Shown here: one piece after another, positions 56,741-64,000 of the stretch
How the letters are laid out: each line of letters begins with the position of its first letter
Position numbering within the stretch: the stretch's first letter is position 1
Assembly: GCF_001509405.1 (NCBI RefSeq)
Contig: NZ_CP011502.1
Location: 1,860,001-1,924,000 of the forward strand
DNA: 64,000 nt
Reading direction: 5' to 3'
DNA from: Aeromicrobium erythreum
GTDB lineage: Bacteria; Actinomycetota; Actinomycetes; Propionibacteriales; Nocardioidaceae
The notes under the pieces: generated by a model
The model's database searches: none
What the model saw: the letters and a program-made list of their open reading frames with translations, nothing else
Told to the model about the DNA's origin: nothing
Program-made: the position numbers and the translations under genes

Positions 56741-56778
56741 CGCGCGTGCGGGGACCGTCGGTGGTTCAGAATGTGTGC

Positions 56779-57738
56779 GTGATCGTCGACTGCGCCACCT
56801 ACCGCGACGGCGTCCGTCAGGACACCGCCCACGACGAGCAGTCGCTCCGCGCGGCGCTGGACGCCCTGGAGGACCACGAGTTCATCTGGATCGGCATGGC
56901 CAACCCACGCGTCGACGAGCTGTCGCGGGTCGCGTCGGCGCTCTCGCTGCACCCGCTGGCCGTCGAGGACGCGCTGGAGGCGCACCAGCGGCCGAAGGTC
57001 GAGCGCTACTCCGACCACCTGTTCGCGTCGCTGCGCAGCGTCACGTACAGCGACGACGACATCCGCACGCACGAGGTCAACGTCTTCCTCGGCGAGAAGT
57101 TCCTGCTGACGGTCCGCCACGGCGGCGAGTCGCTGCGCGAGGCTCGGCGGCGGGCCGAGTCGGTCGACGGCGCGATGTCGCACGGTCCCACGGCGGCCTT
57201 CCACGCCGTGATCGACACGATCGTCGACCACTACGAGGACGTCGCCCGCGAGCTCGAGCAGGACGTGGAGGAGGTCGAGACGTCGGTGTTCTCCGACGAG
57301 CGCACCAGCGACTCGACGCGCATCTACCGGCTCAAGCGCGAGACGCTGGAGTTCCGGCGCGCGGTGCTGCCGCTGCGTGAGCCGGTGCACCGCTTCGCGA
57401 CGGTGGCGGTGCCCGAGGAGGCGCGCCCCTACTTCCGCGACATCGCCGACCACCTCGCCCGGGCGTCGGAGGCGATCGACGCGATCGACCACCTCCTCGA
57501 CAACGCGCTGAACGCGCACCTCGCGCAGCTGTCGGTCCAGCAGAACGAAGACATGCGCAAGCTGACCGCCGGCGCGACGATCTTCGCCGTCCCCACCGCC
57601 ATCGCCGGCATCTACGGCATGAACTTCCGGTACATGCCCGAGCTCTCCTGGCACCTCGGCTACCCGCTGTGCCTCGCCGTGATCGGCAGCCTCTGCCTCT
57701 ACATCTACTGGCGCTTCAAGCGGTCGGGGTGGCTCTGA
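56779..57738 (+). CDS. corA: CorA-family magnesium/cobalt transporter
   Basis: A 319-residue CorA protein. A large cytoplasmic domain (about 1-250) includes PLAVEDALEAHQRPKVERYS. The two C-terminal helices follow, the first ending in IAGIYGMNFRYMPELSW with the GMN selectivity motif. It forms pentameric Mg2+ channels. The GTG at 56779 is chosen because the resulting N-terminus (MIVDCATYRDG) matches actinobacterial CorA proteins and CAGAAT, a plausible -10 box, lies 6 nt upstream. Its stop overlaps the next ATG (TGATG). A near-copy of its last 38 codons occurs at 58107. Confidence 0.94.
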   Translation: MIVDCATYRDGVRQDTAHDEQSLRAALDALEDHEFIWIGMANPRVDELSRVASALSLHPLAVEDALEAHQRPKVERYSDHLFASLRSVTYSDDDIRTHEVNVFLGEKFLLTVRHGGESLREARRRAESVDGAMSHGPTAAFHAVIDTIVDHYEDVARELEQDVEEVETSVFSDERTSDSTRIYRLKRETLEFRRAVLPLREPVHRFATVAVPEEARPYFRDIADHLARASEAIDAIDHLLDNALNAHLAQLSVQQNEDMRKLTAGATIFAVPTAIAGIYGMNFRYMPELSWHLGYPLCLAVIGSLCLYIYWRFKRSGWL

Positions 57739-58052
57739 TGAACCGCACGAGGCCCCTGCCCGAACGGTCCAGGTCCACAACCTTCCGCGCTGCCCTGTGG
57801 CCGGGCCTCCTTGTCGGCCCGGTCCTCAGCTGCGGCACCCTGGCGTTGCTCGACGTCTTGGATCCAGACCAAGGCATCCCCTACCGTGCCGCGCTGCTGT
57901 GCAGCGCGGCAGTTCCTGCCGCCTTCGCCCTCGTCGGTCTCCCCACTCGATACCGCGATGCAGCCGCAGGAGCTGCGGCTGGCTTCCTCGCGTCCGGTCT
58001 GCTGCTGGGACTGTTGTTCCTCGGCCTCGATCACCTCTACGGGAGCTTCTAG
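57738..58052 (+). CDS. Small membrane protein, function unknown
   Basis: A 104-residue protein with three predicted membrane helices: about 20-38 (LWPGLLVGPVLSCGTLALLD), 52-66 and 75-96 (AAAGAAAGFLASGLLLGLLF). I do not recognise a family. The ATG overlaps the corA stop, so it is probably translated with corA. It lies between corA and a decayed copy of the corA 3' end, so it may have arrived or been duplicated together with that fragment. Confidence 0.6.
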   Translation: MNRTRPLPERSRSTTFRAALWPGLLVGPVLSCGTLALLDVLDPDQGIPYRAALLCSAAVPAAFALVGLPTRYRDAAAGAAAGFLASGLLLGLLFLGLDHLYGSF

Positions 58053-58106
58053 GAAAGGGAGTGGGGCAAGGCGGTCCGCCGGGCGCCGGCAGGAGCCCAC
58101 ACCGAC

Positions 58107-58220
58107 GTCCGTTACGTGCCCCAGCTCTCGTGGCACCTCGGCTACCCGATCTGCCTGGCCGTGATCGGCAGCCTCTGCCTCTACGTCTACTGGCGCTTCA
58201 GGCGGTCGGGGTGGCTGTAA
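58107..58220 (+). pseudogene. Duplicated 3' fragment of corA
   Basis: 38 codons ending in TAA translate to VRYVPQLSWHLGYPICLAVI and then GSLCLYVYWRFRRSGWL. This matches the last 38 codons of corA at about 31 of 38 residues, with further silent differences. It has no start, no GMN motif and no upstream domain. It is the remnant of a second corA-like gene or of a tandem duplication whose middle was replaced by the small gene at 57738. Confidence 0.85.
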
Positions 58221-58277
58221 ACCGCCATCAACGGCGACATCGTGACGACGTGACACCCGTTTCCCGGGCGGGAACCG

Positions 58278-58715
58278 TCACAGAGGCCGCAGGACAACAG
58301 GGCCGAGCGAGGTCAATGGGCGCAGCGAGGCGAGCAGCTGCTCGTGCAGGTCGCCGGCAGCCCTGACGGTGACCGAGGTCCCCTCGTCGCACACCGAGGC
58401 CAGCTCCGCGCTCCGCGCGTCCCAGACGTCTGAGGAGTACGCGAAGGGTGCCAGGAGCTCATAGGCCTCCCACTGGGCGGCGTCCTGGGCGTCCCGCCAC
58501 CCCGTGGAGGCGTATCCACGGGACTCCGGCGACAGCACCTGGGCCGCGTGTCGCACGGCGACCGGCCAGTCGCGCGCAACGTCCCAGGGGACGTCGGTCT
58601 GGAAGCGGTCGGCCATCGGCCGGACGACGCGAAGGACGGCCCTGACGACATCGGCTCGCGCGTCGTCGGAGAGCCCGGCGGTCTCGACCGCCCACTCGTC
58701 GCGTCGCCGTAGCAT
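58278..58715 (-). CDS. Hypothetical protein
   Basis: A 145-residue soluble protein (MLRRRDEWAVETAGLSDDAR at the N-terminus, with DVWDARSAELASVCDEGTSV further on). I recognise no family or catalytic motif. The ATG at 58715 has minus-strand TAGCCT 7 nt upstream, the same leaderless arrangement as many genes here. The same frame runs upstream through the SDR remnant, but that is accidental. It appears to be an intact chromosomal gene next to the island boundary. Confidence 0.6.
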   Translation of the reverse strand: MLRRRDEWAVETAGLSDDARADVVRAVLRVVRPMADRFQTDVPWDVARDWPVAVRHAAQVLSPESRGYASTGWRDAQDAAQWEAYELLAPFAYSSDVWDARSAELASVCDEGTSVTVRAAGDLHEQLLASLRPLTSLGPVVLRPL

Positions 58716-58744
58716 GCGCCGCAGGCTATCGAAGGTGCACGCCC

Positions 58745-59205
58745 TCAGTCGCCCTTCGGGTCCAGCGTCGGGCGGACTGAGATGGTCTCGAACTGCGCCT
58801 CGGGCGGGGCGTCGACGGCGACGCGCACCGCTGCGGCGATGGTGGCCGGCTGGATCATCCGTTCCGGGTGCCCGCCGTCGCCGCGCTCCAGCACCTGACG
58901 GCCCATCGCCGTGTCGACGATGCCCGGATGCACCGACACGACGCGCGCCGTGCTCACGCTCCTCCTCGCGCAGGCAGTCGGCGAAGGTGCGCAGCGCGAA
59001 CTTGCTGCCCGAGTACACCGCGTTGCCGGGCGTCGAGAACAGCCCGGCGCCGGAGTTCACGAGCACGACCGTCGCTCCCCCGTCGCGCAGCGTGGGCAGC
59101 AGCCGCGACGTCAGGTGGGCGACGCCGAAGACGTTGACCTCGAACACCGAGCGCCAGTCCTCGCGCGTCACCTCGCCAACCGTGGCGTCGGCGACCGTTA
59201 ACACG
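58745..59205 (-). pseudogene. Short-chain dehydrogenase remnant, 5'-truncated and frameshifted
   Basis: The minus strand codes for an SDR core: DWRSVFEVNVFGVAHLTSRL, VLVNSGAGLFSTPGNAVYSG with YSGSK holding the catalytic Tyr and Lys, then a break, then ARVVSVHPGIVDTAMGRQVL to the stop at 58745. The two parts are in different frames; one base is missing in a GC run near 58941-58950. The Rossmann glycine motif and everything before VLTVADATVGEV are absent: homology stops at about 59205, where the low-GC island begins. Confidence 0.85.
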
Positions 59206-59371
59206 TCATGACGCGGCGGTGAGCTTCTCGCAGGTCGTCGGTACACGCCGTGGGATTTAGTCGCGCACGAACAATCGCAAGCACATCAACACGGGGCGTG
59301 GCGAGAATGTTCGTCCGAGGGTGGGTGCCCGACGGTCGGAGACGCTCAAAGACGATCCGATAGGACGATTT

Positions 59372-61723
59372 TCAGCGATCGAAGATCGCACTGACCTCCC
59401 TATCGTCAGATTGATCTCCCCTATCCCTCCACTCTTCGGCCCGGTGTTCGGCAATCTCATCCGCACGCCCGGCCAACTCGGTCTGAATGCTTTCGAAGAG
59501 CCCTTCGTCGTAGCGCACGCCAAGGAACTCCGCTAGCTCTCGGGCTTGCTCCAGTTCGTCTAGATCGAGATATTCCAGCGAGTTGTCGAGCAGATCGTTA
59601 AACCATGACTCGAACTCCCATGAGTGACGTCCTAGGTAGTCGCTCCCATTGGCGTCCTCCGCTGACAACCGGTTGAGCAGGTCCCACTTTTCTGCGCTGG
59701 GTGGCAACTCGTCTAACAGATCGCGGGCCGCCGTCCAGACCCCTTCTGGCACTGACTCTTTACCTACTGCTTCAAGAAGATCAACAACTTCAGCACAGGC
59801 GAGCTCGTCAAAGTCTTCCGTGCTCTTCGCCCACCGCTCTGCTTCAGCGGTCGTGAGCTCGTTGAGCGCGGTAGAGAGCGACTCCCGACAAACTGCGGAG
59901 ACAGAAGCGGCACGTTGCAGAGCGAGCAGACGGACCGCGGGACTTGAGTACGACCAACCCACCCTCGACTGAAGCCCAACGAACCTCAATCCAAAGTTCG
60001 GAGCGGGACGATCAAAAAGTTTGAGGAGTGCGTCGCCGACGAGTCGATCAAAATTGTCGATTTCGCCGGGCCTCAGGCGATCTCGGACACTGTCGAGGAC
60101 CCACACTGCCTGCTCGAAGTACGAAAGCGACCCGATCAACGCAGTCCTACGCGATTGCTCTTCGACAAGAAGTCCGGCAACGAAATCCGCAATCGAAGGG
60201 TTGCGCAGTCGAACTAGTAGCTCTCCGGTACCTGCGCCGTCCCGGCTAGTAGCGATAAAGGAGTCATCAAGGACCCTCAACATTCGCTCGAGGTCCCCTG
60301 GTCGACTCGCATCGCATAATTCGCTTGACGCGGCCGCGTTGATCAACTCGTAGGCGACGCTTTCAGAAACGGCTCCAGGAAGGCAAGCGAGTAGCATCAC
60401 GAGCGCTTGCCCCTTCGACTCGACCTGCGACTCGAAAGGTGCTCGCCAAACCGAGTCCGGATTGTCAAAGACAGCCTTGATGTAAGCGGCGAAATCTGCT
60501 GGTACCCCCGCTCGAAGGCTCGGGTCCGTGTAGGTGGCGAACTCGATGAGCCGAGGATTGTAGTTCGGGTGGTCAATCAGTCGAAGATACGCCTGGCCCT
60601 CACGTAATTGGGTGAGCGCCTCAGAGTCGTGGAGGTGAGGTGAGTGAAAGATGTGGTTGTAAAGGATCCGGGCTCGTTCGACTCGCGTGTACTCGTCCAA
60701 CTCGATGATCAGCCGGTCGAGGTGAACGTCGACGCGTTCAAGTTCCTCATAGTCAGCCAGCGCCTGTCGAAGGATGTACTCCCGGGTCGTCATCACGAAC
60801 AGTGAATTCTCATTCTGCCGACAAGAACGTATGAACGACGCCAATCTCTTGTCTTCGTTCTTGTCCAACCGGTTGCTGAGAAAGTTGCTACCTAGGAAAT
60901 CGTCGTAGTAGAAAATCTGCTTCTTCTCGCGATCGAGAACTCTATGCGCCTCATCGATGTCTGCCGACACCAAAACTGGCTCGAAGCCTCTACTGGCGGC
61001 CTGGGCAACGAGCAACCGCGCAATGGTTGTCTTTCCAACACCTGGGGGCCCACTGATGACAAGAACCTTGTTCGCATCAAGCATCTCCGACGCTCGATGG
61101 AACACGCCTGTCTCCACGTACCGAGACATCGTGGCTTCAACTTCAGACGCCAACTCGCGACTCCGTTCCCAGATACCCGCATGCAGTTGGGCGCTTAACT
61201 GACCGGCACCCGCGATCCAGAGCTTGACGTGCCCCCTCTCAACATCGGGGTTCCGGTTGAGGGCCAACTCAATGTCCTCTCGACCCCAGATGTCGCTCTC
61301 GCTCTTGATCCACGGCGACAACTTTGACTTCAGTTCAGCCTTGTTCGCGCTAGTCAACGACATCGTCGTCCAAAACTCGTAGTGTTTCGGCCTGGAAGAC
61401 AACACATCGAGCTTCTTCTTCTCGTCGTTCGCCGAGGACCTCAACTGCGGGAACGTGCTGCCGAGCATGTGCTTGCACTGGACCACTTCAAGTCCCGCGG
61501 GACCAAGGCGACGTACGTCAACGCCTCGATCGCGGCCGCGAGCGAACACCTCCCACCGCACGTTGCCATCCCTCTCTGCCTGGAGGATGGCGCAAACGAG
61601 GAGTTCAAAGTCGTGATCTGAGAGCATTGAGTAACTTCGCACGAAGTCGACTGTAGAGAGTCTGGGGATCTCTCGGTCCTGTCGTTCACGCGCACTCTCC
61701 CCCAAAGGCACCAGACTCGGCAT
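59372..61723 (-). CDS. Restriction-endonuclease-like/STAND (nSTAND3-type) NTPase, candidate defence protein
   Basis: A 783-residue protein. The N-terminal domain (about 30-130) resembles Mrr-type PD-(D/E)XK nucleases: DHDFELLVCAILQAERDG, GRDRGVDVRRLG and LEVVQCKHM supply the D...QxK set. The NTPase (about 200-420) has VLVISGPPGVGKTTIARLLV (Walker A) and KKQIFYYDDFLGSNF (Walker B). YYDDFLG is typical of nSTAND3. A long helical C-terminal region (about 430-783) could be the sensor. Such nuclease-STAND fusions are known or suspected anti-phage systems. The ATG at 61723 is chosen; the frame is open to 61912. Confidence 0.85.
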   Translation of the reverse strand: MPSLVPLGESARERQDREIPRLSTVDFVRSYSMLSDHDFELLVCAILQAERDGNVRWEVFARGRDRGVDVRRLGPAGLEVVQCKHMLGSTFPQLRSSANDEKKKLDVLSSRPKHYEFWTTMSLTSANKAELKSKLSPWIKSESDIWGREDIELALNRNPDVERGHVKLWIAGAGQLSAQLHAGIWERSRELASEVEATMSRYVETGVFHRASEMLDANKVLVISGPPGVGKTTIARLLVAQAASRGFEPVLVSADIDEAHRVLDREKKQIFYYDDFLGSNFLSNRLDKNEDKRLASFIRSCRQNENSLFVMTTREYILRQALADYEELERVDVHLDRLIIELDEYTRVERARILYNHIFHSPHLHDSEALTQLREGQAYLRLIDHPNYNPRLIEFATYTDPSLRAGVPADFAAYIKAVFDNPDSVWRAPFESQVESKGQALVMLLACLPGAVSESVAYELINAAASSELCDASRPGDLERMLRVLDDSFIATSRDGAGTGELLVRLRNPSIADFVAGLLVEEQSRRTALIGSLSYFEQAVWVLDSVRDRLRPGEIDNFDRLVGDALLKLFDRPAPNFGLRFVGLQSRVGWSYSSPAVRLLALQRAASVSAVCRESLSTALNELTTAEAERWAKSTEDFDELACAEVVDLLEAVGKESVPEGVWTAARDLLDELPPSAEKWDLLNRLSAEDANGSDYLGRHSWEFESWFNDLLDNSLEYLDLDELEQARELAEFLGVRYDEGLFESIQTELAGRADEIAEHRAEEWRDRGDQSDDREVSAIFDR

Positions 61724-61812
61724 TGCTCGTTCGCGGGCGTTGAAGGGTCGCCAGCGGGCAACTCTCCCTACACTGAGCGTGCCGATGTCCACAGGCGCGG
61801 GGACGAAGACTG

Positions 61813-62406
61813 ATGACGAGTACGAAGCAGTCCGCACTACTTGCTGCCACGAGCACTTTGCTTGGGGCCGCCCTCGGCGTTGGGGCGACACTCTTCGTCG
61901 GCCAGGTGTCAATCTCTGCCGATCGTGATCGCGAAGTTCGCGAGTCTCGACACGCGGCGTACACCGCGCTCGCTGCGACGCTGCCCAAGTACATCGACGA
62001 GTCAGTGAAATTCTATGAAACCCGCGATCAGCATTGCCAGTTCGAAGTCACCGTGAAGGGAAAATCTGGGCCTACGTGCATGATGTACGTACTTACTGGC
62101 GACTTCATGACAGCGCGAAGTGCCTGGCTGGACGCGGTGACTGCGGTCCGCATTTTTGGGAGCGATGACGCGGTGAAGGCGATCAATCGACTCGATGAAT
62201 TGATGGACAGCGGAAACACGCGCTACGCGAGGCCCTGGGGTGCATACGTTGACGAGATGTTCAAGGAACCGTCAGCCGAGGAGGAAGAGGACGTAACAGA
62301 GGTCCAAGATGAAGCTAGCGAGTTGATGCAGGACTTCGACCTTCTCACCTGTGTCGAATTGAACGGCAATCTCAGCCGGAGCCAGTGCGCTGAACGGTTC
62401 GGATAA
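61813..62406 (+). CDS. Membrane-anchored hypothetical protein, divergent from the STAND gene
   Basis: A 197-residue protein with one N-terminal membrane helix (about 7-31, LLAATSTLLGAALGVGATLF) followed by DRDREVRESRHAAYTALAAT, likely a cytoplasmic or periplasmic helical domain, and an acidic stretch EEEEDVTEV before the C-terminus. It contains four cysteines in pairs (C around QHCQ and PTCMM, then LLTCVE and SQCAE). No family was recognised. It starts 90 nt from the STAND gene on the opposite strand, so the two may share regulation and could work together. Confidence 0.65.
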   Translation: MTSTKQSALLAATSTLLGAALGVGATLFVGQVSISADRDREVRESRHAAYTALAATLPKYIDESVKFYETRDQHCQFEVTVKGKSGPTCMMYVLTGDFMTARSAWLDAVTAVRIFGSDDAVKAINRLDELMDSGNTRYARPWGAYVDEMFKEPSAEEEEDVTEVQDEASELMQDFDLLTCVELNGNLSRSQCAERFG

Positions 62407-62691
62407 GACCACTCCGGTCCGCTAGCGCGGCAACCCGAACCTCCCGTCAGCGAGCCTCCGAGCTTGAGATACCGCGCACCCTCAAAGGTACTTCCGTGAG
62501 TACGAGCGGCTACCTGTGTCGCGTGTTTGTGCACGACGCGAAGACTCCAGTAACGGGAAGTCCGACCAAGATCATTGGGGTCATCCACAGGTCCATTTCG
62601 CGTCCCCCTCGCCGTGACGACGGCGGTCGCGGTGGAACCAAGAAGAACCGCCCCGCGCTGGTCCCCTCGATTTGGATCGCCTCCGCACGGT

Positions 62692-64000
62692 TCAGGTGGG
62701 ATGGAGGAACTGTCCTGCGTCATCGATAGTCCTTGGTTCCTGGCGGCCGACCCTATGGGTGAGCAACTCGTTGAGGGCCACATCCAGCTCGAAGACGATC
62801 TTCTGCTCTATGGGAAGACGTCCGGGGTAGACCATCCACCGTCCGATGGCGACGAGCAGGCGACATCGCTCAGCCGAGGTGCTCTCAACCCTCATCTCGC
62901 TGACCGTCTTCCCGGTCTCGTCAATGACGTACGTGCGATCCGCAGGTAGTTCGTGCGCGGACTTCAGCGCCTTTTTCGCCCGCCGCAGGGACTGGAAGAC
63001 CCGTTCCTCTTCCTCGTCCTCTAGGTCGTCCAGAAGAGCCGCTTGGACGGCCTCCAGATCTACCTCAGCGCGCGTGATGGCCTCTGCCTTGGTGCTGGTC
63101 GAGTCGGACCACCTTCCTGCCACGACCGAGCGGTCGCCGTAGAGGTCGAGGAAAGTCTGCTCGATGTACGAGTCGGCGGCAGAGACCTGGACCGAGGCGG
63201 CTGGCGTGCCCCGTTCATGCTTGGCTCGACCGCACTTGTAGCCGTTGTTGTTCGGCCTCGACGGACCACCGTTGCTCCGGTAGAGCCTGAAGCCACACTC
63301 CGAGCACGTGAGTGCGGGACCGTAGCCCTCCTGGCGGCTCCACGATCGCTTCTCCGGGCGCTTCATGTAGTCGCGGAGCTCGCTCCACTCGGCCATCGTG
63401 AGCAGGGCCGCTTCGGGGTCCACCTGGGGCACGCCGTGACTGTTCACCACCCCGTCCCCGCTCGGGGTCATGCCGGCGAGCCGGGCGTTGCGGAGCAGCA
63501 CCGAGAAGCCCGCCTCCTTGATCGGGAGATCCTCGACAACCCTCGCCTGGGGCTCGCCGCCCATCACGCGACGGATCGCGTCTCGAAGGATCGCCGCGGG
63601 CGACTGCTCGCCTCGACCGGGAGCATCCCAGTCGGGCCGGATCACCAGGCCACGACCGTTCGGGTTGTCGACGGACTTGAAGCCGAAGGGGGCAGCGCCC
63701 ACCGCGTGCCGACCCTCGTTGGCGAACGCGACCAGGGACTCCCGACGACGCTCTCCGGTGATGTTTGGTTCGAGCTCAGCGATGGCCGCGAGCACAACGA
63801 GGATGAACTTGCCGATCGGTCCCGACGTGTCGATGTTCTGCTCGATGGAGACGATCGAGGCTCCGGCTTCCTCGATGTGCTCCACGAGGTCGAGCAGGTC
63901 CCGCACGTTCCGGGCGGCTCGGTCGATCTTGGTGACGAGCACGCGGTCGCCCGGGCGCAGGTCGCCGAGCAAGCGCTTGCCTGCCGGTCGAGCGCCGAAC
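62692..64000 (-). CDS. Large serine recombinase (integrase), 5' end outside the window
   Basis: The visible 435 codons begin FGARPAGKRLLGDLRPGDRV and continue with LVTKIDRAARNVRDLLDLVE, IDTSGPIGKFILVVLAAIAE and GERRRESLVAFANEGRHAVG, the resolvase core after the catalytic serine. A recombinase domain follows. The zinc ribbon has LTCSECGFRLYRSNGG and GYKCGRA, then a coiled coil around residues 320-350 ends the chain. Such enzymes integrate phages and integrative elements at att sites. The catalytic Ser lies beyond position 64000. Confidence 0.92.
   Translation of the reverse strand, partial: FGARPAGKRLLGDLRPGDRVLVTKIDRAARNVRDLLDLVEHIEEAGASIVSIEQNIDTSGPIGKFILVVLAAIAELEPNITGERRRESLVAFANEGRHAVGAAPFGFKSVDNPNGRGLVIRPDWDAPGRGEQSPAAILRDAIRRVMGGEPQARVVEDLPIKEAGFSVLLRNARLAGMTPSGDGVVNSHGVPQVDPEAALLTMAEWSELRDYMKRPEKRSWSRQEGYGPALTCSECGFRLYRSNGGPSRPNNNGYKCGRAKHERGTPAASVQVSAADSYIEQTFLDLYGDRSVVAGRWSDSTSTKAEAITRAEVDLEAVQAALLDDLEDEEEERVFQSLRRAKKALKSAHELPADRTYVIDETGKTVSEMRVESTSAERCRLLVAIGRWMVYPGRLPIEQKIVFELDVALNELLTHRVGRQEPRTIDDAGQFLHPT

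What the first reader, a model, noticed from the sequence alone, without database searches (positions are those of the whole stretch)
59206..64000. Low-GC island with a nuclease-STAND defence candidate next to a serine integrase
Seen: the sequence becomes AT-richer at about 59205 and carries a REase-like/STAND NTPase (D...QxK plus GPPGVGKTT and YYDDFLG), a divergent membrane-anchored protein and a serine recombinase. Known: nSTAND NTPases with effector domains act against phages, and defence genes travel on recombinase islands. Inferred: this is an anti-phage island whose C-terminal helical region recognises a phage product and activates the nuclease. The exact domain combination and the partner gene may be undescribed.
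Basis: partly seen in the sequence, partly recalled or inferred. Interest (0 to 1): 0.8.

Follow-up and report, generated by a model that had tools for sequence, protein, structure and literature searches.

The report
Nuclease–STAND defence gene, decayed island
A foreign DNA island in an actinobacterial chromosome carries an intact gene for a nuclease joined to an NLR-like molecular switch, a widespread but apparently untested type of candidate anti-phage protein; its neighbouring 'integrase' is a dead remnant and its 'partner gene' is an orphan.

Summary
The observation largely holds. Window 59189-64000+ is a low-GC insert carrying an intact 783-aa protein: Mrr-like PD-(D/E)XK nuclease, nSTAND3 NTPase and variable helical C-terminus. 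The island reading needs correcting: the serine recombinase is a pseudogene (early stop plus frameshift), and the divergent membrane protein is an orphan, so there is no conserved gene pair. The domain combination is already catalogued as PADLOC candidate PDC-S73 (E=2e-129), with homologues at 80 fetched genome loci and in 44 plasmid records, some beside Gabija/OLD, Wadjet, pAgo, AbiE or RM genes or integrases. The nuclease model fits the PD-(D/E)XK fold, with Avs4 among the top matches; the whole model resembles Avs5, which has the same nSTAND3 switch but a SIR2 effector. The C-terminal domain diverges about twice as fast as the rest, as expected of a sensor. I read it as an effector-swapped Avs-like sensor: ligand binding, NTPase oligomerisation, nuclease clustering, collateral DNA damage. 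A possibly new detail is a conserved C-terminal tail motif ([ILV]xx[LM]Fxx[LIM]) at the end of the otherwise unconserved sensor. No activity has been shown.

The parts
59189..64000 (.). Low-GC acquired island, continuing about 170 bp past the window to genome 1924170
   Evidence: GC 53-69% against about 72%; absent from sibling genome G028, where corA and the SDR gene are neighbours
59372..61723 (-). Intact REase-nSTAND3 gene, 783 aa (homologues suggest a start at the GTG of residue 28)
61154..61633 (-). Residues 31-190: Mrr-like PD-(D/E)XK nuclease domain plus linker; D65, D69, Q82, K84, E101 conserved in about 99% of 86 homologues
60647..61120 (-). Residues 202-359: nSTAND3 NTPase (PF20720), GPPGVGKTT and DDFLG
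   Evidence: E=1.3e-53
60104..60403 (-). Residues 441-540: conserved region after the NTPase (winged-helix-like, an inference), with the NPSxxD motif
59429..60103 (-). Residues 541-765: fast-diverging helical C-terminal domain, presumed sensor
   Evidence: 27% mean identity in pairs whose NTPase averages 59%; helical in the model
59378..59413 (-). Residues 771-782: conserved C-terminal tail helix (V-S-A-I-F-D-R here)
   Evidence: F781 in 90% of homologues; motif 51/86 against 0.3 in shuffles; blocks of pLDDT about 84-85 after a block of 47
61813..62406 (+). 197-aa protein with N-terminal hydrophobic segment; orphan
   Evidence: no match in 391 other genomes of the order, in plasmids, or above cut-off in Pfam/PADLOC/NCBIfam
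62692..64000 (-). Serine recombinase pseudogene (5' end beyond the window at genome 1924139)
   Evidence: early stop and frameshift against the intact homologue in L153
58740..59188 (-). Partial second copy of an SDR gene, cut at the island's left edge; intact copy at genome 1924756-1925448
   Evidence: 96% identical duplicate
58105..58219 (+). Second copy of the corA 3' end; third copy at genome 1924171-1924288
   Evidence: 91-96% identity between copies
56746..57738 (+). Intact corA, the gene whose 3' end is repeated

Best explanation
The gene encodes a single-protein, Avs-like immune sensor. In the resting state the nSTAND3 NTPase is held inactive, perhaps helped by the C-terminal tail helix. 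A phage or foreign-replicon product binds the fast-evolving C-terminal helical domain. Nucleotide-bound NTPases then oligomerise, as in Avs5 or NLR resistosomes, which brings the N-terminal PD-(D/E)XK domains together and switches on DNA cleavage, probably collateral and abortive. Shown here by computation: domain make-up, intact catalytic and Walker residues, the predicted folds, sensor-like divergence, defence and mobile contexts, the tail motif. Inferred: ligand, oligomer, collateral cleavage, tail function. The serine recombinase (dead) and the 197-aa gene (orphan) are island baggage and not parts of the mechanism.
For: nSTAND3 E=1.3e-53. PADLOC PDC-S73 in 11/11 homologues, Mrr_cat in 9/11. 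Catalytic D, Q, K about 99% conserved in 86 homologues; the same D/Q/K triad as the SPARDA DREN nuclease, which works only when clustered on filaments (PMC12205087), and a PADLOC APAZ-effector model matches residues 30-190 at E=4.9e-27. The N-terminal model fits PD-(D/E)XK nucleases, top rows Avs4 Z 11.3 (rmsd 10.9, 164 aligned) and AF1548 Z 11.0 (rmsd 2.9, 115 aligned). The whole model finds Avs5 filaments (E 5.8e-7 and 7.1e-6) and NLR/CED-4 assemblies (Z about 16-17, residues 173-564). Avs5 carries the same nSTAND3 family (PMC12931631). The C-terminal domain diverges twice as fast as the core. Strong GajA, Wadjet, pAgo, AbiE and type I RM matches among neighbours, against only generic helicase/AAA-type matches in 64 control ORFs.
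Against: No activity, ligand or phage protection is known for this family in the papers searched. The Avs5 match has low TM-scores (about 0.3), so relative domain placement is uncertain. The nuclease region has no Pfam match above cut-off in this particular protein (Mrr_cat E=0.015). Neighbour tallies count families and not loci, and the control ORFs come from a high-GC genome with a crude gene caller.
Confidence: 0.7

Rival explanations
1. It is an NTP-dependent restriction enzyme that recognises foreign or modified DNA directly, as Mrr or McrBC do, and not a protein-sensing STAND switch.
For: The N-terminal domain belongs to the Mrr/restriction fold, and related plasmid genes are annotated 'restriction endonuclease'.
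Against: The NTPase is nSTAND3, not an McrB-type or helicase motor; no DNA-recognition domain was found; the C-terminal domain diverges like a sensor; no linked methyltransferase was seen in the island.
Confidence: 0.13
2. It defends against plasmids or other mobile elements, or serves inter-element competition, and not mainly phage.
For: 44 plasmid records carry homologues, some next to repABC genes.
Against: Neighbours also include anti-phage families such as Gabija, pAgo and RM; plasmids commonly carry anti-phage genes (general knowledge).
Confidence: 0.1
3. It is a two-gene system in which the divergent membrane-anchored 197-aa protein is the effector or regulator.
For: Divergent neighbour 90 bp away on the same island.
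Against: The 197-aa gene occurs in no other genome of 392 in the order and in no plasmid; no neighbour family recurs at more than 9 homologous loci; the STAND protein has its own effector.
Confidence: 0.04
4. The gene is a decaying passenger without present function in this genome.
For: The island's recombinase is a pseudogene and its left edge looks truncated.
Against: The STAND ORF is full length with every catalytic and Walker residue intact.
Confidence: 0.08

Closest known systems
PADLOC candidate PDC-S73 (PDLC05079)
   Same: Match over residues 31-534 at E=2e-129; all 11 aligned homologues match
   Different: A computed candidate; no paper naming it was found. The C-terminal 250 residues fall outside the match.
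Avs5 (AVAST type 5; SIR2-nSTAND3)
   Same: Same nSTAND3 NTPase family, similar size and tripartite plan, whole-model structural match
   Different: N-terminal effector is a PD-(D/E)XK nuclease and not SIR2
Avs4 (PDB 8dgf)
   Same: N-terminal nuclease domain and following linker give a top structural match, Z 11.3 over 164 residues
   Different: Avs4 is about twice as long (1534-1541 residues in the structure); the rest was not matched here
SPARDA DREN-APAZ nuclease
   Same: Same D/Q/K catalytic set; a PADLOC APAZ-effector model matches residues 30-190
   Different: The match stops at residue 190; the switch here is a STAND NTPase. DREN structures were not found by the sequence search
P4-hotspot STAND proteins with Mrr_cat nuclease (Rousset et al. 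2022, PMC9122126)
   Same: Described as Mrr_cat plus STAND NTPase plus C-terminal repeats
   Different: Sequences not compared here, so family identity is unknown

Membership tests
PADLOC PDC-S73 | Match to the PDC-S73 profile | tested here: met
   E=2.1e-129, residues 31-534; 11/11 homologues
nSTAND3 STAND NTPases (PF20720) | Score above the curated cut-off | tested here: met
   181.3 bits against 27.2
PD-(D/E)XK / Mrr_cat nucleases | Core fold and catalytic residues | tested here: met
   Model pLDDT 91 matches many PD-(D/E)XK nucleases; D69, Q82, K84 conserved. This protein's own Mrr_cat score is below cut-off; 9/11 homologues match at E<=0.001
Avs5 | SIR2-like N-terminal effector | tested here: not met
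   N-terminus is a PD-(D/E)XK nuclease
Avs5 | nSTAND3 NTPase | tested here: met
Avs5 | Activation by a phage protein with filament assembly | not testable with these tools
   needs biochemistry
Avs4 | Nuclease domain related to that of Avs4 | tested here: inconclusive
   Z 11.3 but rmsd 10.9 over 164 residues, tied with AF1548
SPARDA effector (DREN-APAZ) | APAZ domain with a partner Argonaute | not tested
   Matches to PADLOC APAZ-effector models stop at residue 190; island ORFs were not scanned for Argonaute specifically
Functional large serine integrase (the recombinase) | Intact N-terminal catalytic domain in frame | tested here: not met
   Stop codon and frameshift against the L153 homologue

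The most novel reading that the evidence does not exclude
The conserved C-terminal tail ([ILV]xx[LM]Fxx[LIM], or IxxLF-R as here) is a shared control element: a helical latch or docking peptide that most members keep while the sensor before it changes freely. A subset ends in an SSB-like DDLPF tip, so some members may read or borrow a host replication-protein interaction.
Probability: 0.3. Interest if true: 0.6.

Novelty: new member of a known kind. Interest (0 to 1): 0.4.

Why it matters
If the reading holds, nSTAND3 is an exchangeable switch that bacteria fit with either SIR2 (Avs5) or a nuclease (this family). A widespread, catalogued but, as far as the papers searched show, untested family would gain a concrete, testable mechanism, and its conserved tail would give a handle on how such switches are kept off. 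The correction also matters: the dead recombinase and the orphan neighbour should not be cited as parts of a defence system.

Tried and rejected
Conserved partner gene: rejected; the 197-aa gene has no relative in 391 other genomes of the order or in plasmids. Among 617 nearby ORFs at homologous loci, the only family at more than three loci is a roughly 600-710-aa ATPase at 9 loci; from its sequence and the GajA/OLD tallies I take it to be OLD/Gabija-like, but those members were not scanned one by one. corA 3' end as a genus-wide attachment hotspot: not seen; full-length repeats only in this genome. tRNA attachment site or Rfam element in the window: none. Solved structure by sequence: only generic P-loop matches and a chance hit. 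Relatives in viral contigs: none with the single sequence, two with the alignment; two unannotated phage records. nSTAND3 is rare in this phylum sample, 2 of 396 genomes, so the comparison of effectors used Pseudomonas, 19 of 299. I skipped a formal per-locus enrichment test because the tool reports family counts only. The docking site of the tail could not be examined, as no coordinates are returned.

Full report
The window is 1860001-1924000 of a single 3.63-Mb contig. GC drops from about 72% to 53-62% at window 59189-59205 and stays low past the window end, returning to about 70% near genome 1924400. The sibling genome G028 lacks the insert: corA is followed by a short spacer and the SDR gene. 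Here the corA 3' end occurs three times (genome 1917620, 1918105, 1924171) and the SDR gene twice, once cut at the island's left edge and once intact beyond its right edge. Such full-length corA repeats were found in no other genome of the genus sample. I read the right edge as a likely attachment junction, since the recombinase start (1924139) lies about 30 bp from the third corA copy, and the left edge as a later recombination or deletion junction; this is inference.

The recombinase is a pseudogene. Its Pfam match starts at position 48 of the Resolvase domain. The intact homologue in G161 begins MADRGYGRISLDT; the matching stretch here lies in a different frame with an internal stop, followed by a frameshift into the long ORF. 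A sequencing error cannot be excluded for either change, but two independent lesions make decay the simpler view. The 197-aa divergent gene has no relative in 391 other genomes of the order or in plasmids, so there is no conserved pair.

The STAND protein is intact. It has nSTAND3 at E=1.3e-53 and matches PADLOC candidate PDC-S73 over residues 31-534 at E=2e-129. In 86 homologues the nuclease residues D65, D69, Q82, K84 and E101 and the Walker A residues are about 99-100% conserved. Homologues occur in 44 plasmid records and at 80 fetched genome loci from many phyla, including an archaeon and candidate-phyla genomes, mostly as single genes of about 740-790 aa. The family is rare in this order: 2 of 294 genomes.

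Fold. The N-terminal domain alone (pLDDT 91) matches PD-(D/E)XK nucleases; the top rows are Avs4, Z 11.3 (rmsd 10.9 over 164 residues), AF1548, Z 11.0 (2.9 over 115) and LlaBIII, Z 10.1, followed by Card1, MspJI and others. In the whole model (pLDDT 84, pTM 0.72) residues 173-564 match plant NLRs and CED-4 at Z about 16-17, and Foldseek's best whole-chain matches include two Avs5 filament structures (E 5.8e-7 and 7.1e-6) and human SAMD9, at low TM-score. Avs5 is described as SIR2-nSTAND3 (PMC12931631), so this family is an effector-swapped relative in plan, not an Avs5. Rousset et al. (PMC9122126) already mention STAND proteins whose N-terminal effector is Mrr_cat. The catalytic D/Q/K set equals that of the SPARDA DREN nuclease, which has no detectable activity alone and is active when clustered on a filament (PMC12205087).

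Sensor and tail. In 225 homologue pairs with NTPase identity 50-97%, mean identity is 57% (nuclease), 59% (NTPase), 46% (residues 441-540), 27% (residues 541-762) and 36% (tail). Against that background F781 is conserved in 90%. The motif [ILV]xx[LM]Fxx[LIM] lies in the last 45 residues of 51 of 86 proteins, against a mean of 0.3 after shuffling those residues and about 1% of other 45-residue stretches of the C-terminal domain. The window's own tail, VSAIFDR, belongs to a second flavour (IxxLF-R) also seen in Pseudomonas homologues. Confidence of the tail helix in the model is about 84-85 by 10-residue blocks, after a block of 47; this is fair, not high, and does not by itself show docking. 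Seven of 86 proteins end in PF against 0.1 expected, four of them in an acidic DDLPF/DDTLPF-type tip that recalls the SSB C-terminus (the SSB comparison is from general knowledge). For PaAvs5, deletion of C-terminal helices abolishes immunity.

Context. Among neighbours within two genes, eight or nine of 129 match GajA/OLD/AriA models and single or few members match Wadjet, pAgo, AbiE and type I RM at very strong E-values; 64 control ORFs from core chromosome gave only generic helicase, AAA and similar cross-matches. Pfam domains seen among neighbours include integrases, resolvases and transposases, and the G057 homologue abuts a phage-type integrase. The control is imperfect, as noted under evidence against.

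Verdict: an ordinary but intact member of a catalogued, apparently untested defence-candidate family, carried on a decayed island. The mechanism proposed is the best supported one, and the tail is the one feature I would follow up.

Noticed in passing
window 56746-59188; L002 1620-1734, 2105-2219, 8171-8288: The corA 3' end is present three times and an SDR gene twice around the island; copies differ by 4-9%, suggesting import from relatives or repeated recombination at this spot.
   Followed up: partly
window 57738-58052: Small hydrophobic ORF whose ATG overlaps the corA stop codon (ATGA), between the first and second corA 3' copies; the stretch 57735-58104 has no match in the aligned part of sibling G028.
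   Followed up: no
L060, L091, L100, L103 (C-termini); also L080, L087, L088: Members ending in PF, several with an acidic DDLPF-like tip resembling the SSB C-terminal tail.
   Followed up: partly
L024 (Prosthecochloris plasmid pPAES01), 2941-10295: A REase-nSTAND3 gene lies next to a diversity-generating retroelement (Avd, reverse transcriptase, formylglycine-generating-enzyme-type proteins).
   Followed up: no
L040, L042, L046, L049, L056, L059, L068, L075, L082: A roughly 600-710-aa ATPase family sits one to three genes from the STAND gene at 9 loci, mostly just upstream; it looks OLD/Gabija-like.
   Followed up: partly
G866:C1:2428342-2432508 and G908:C54:270835-273763: Two nSTAND3 genes in tandem in Pseudomonas genomes: one of about 760 aa and one of about 1360 aa with a different N-terminus.
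   Followed up: no
L168-L171: nSTAND3 proteins in Pseudomonas with a different REase-like N-terminus (DGGQD...QCKH in L170-L171) and, in L168-L170, tails such as DIFDDVDL or SLFEDVDK.
   Followed up: no
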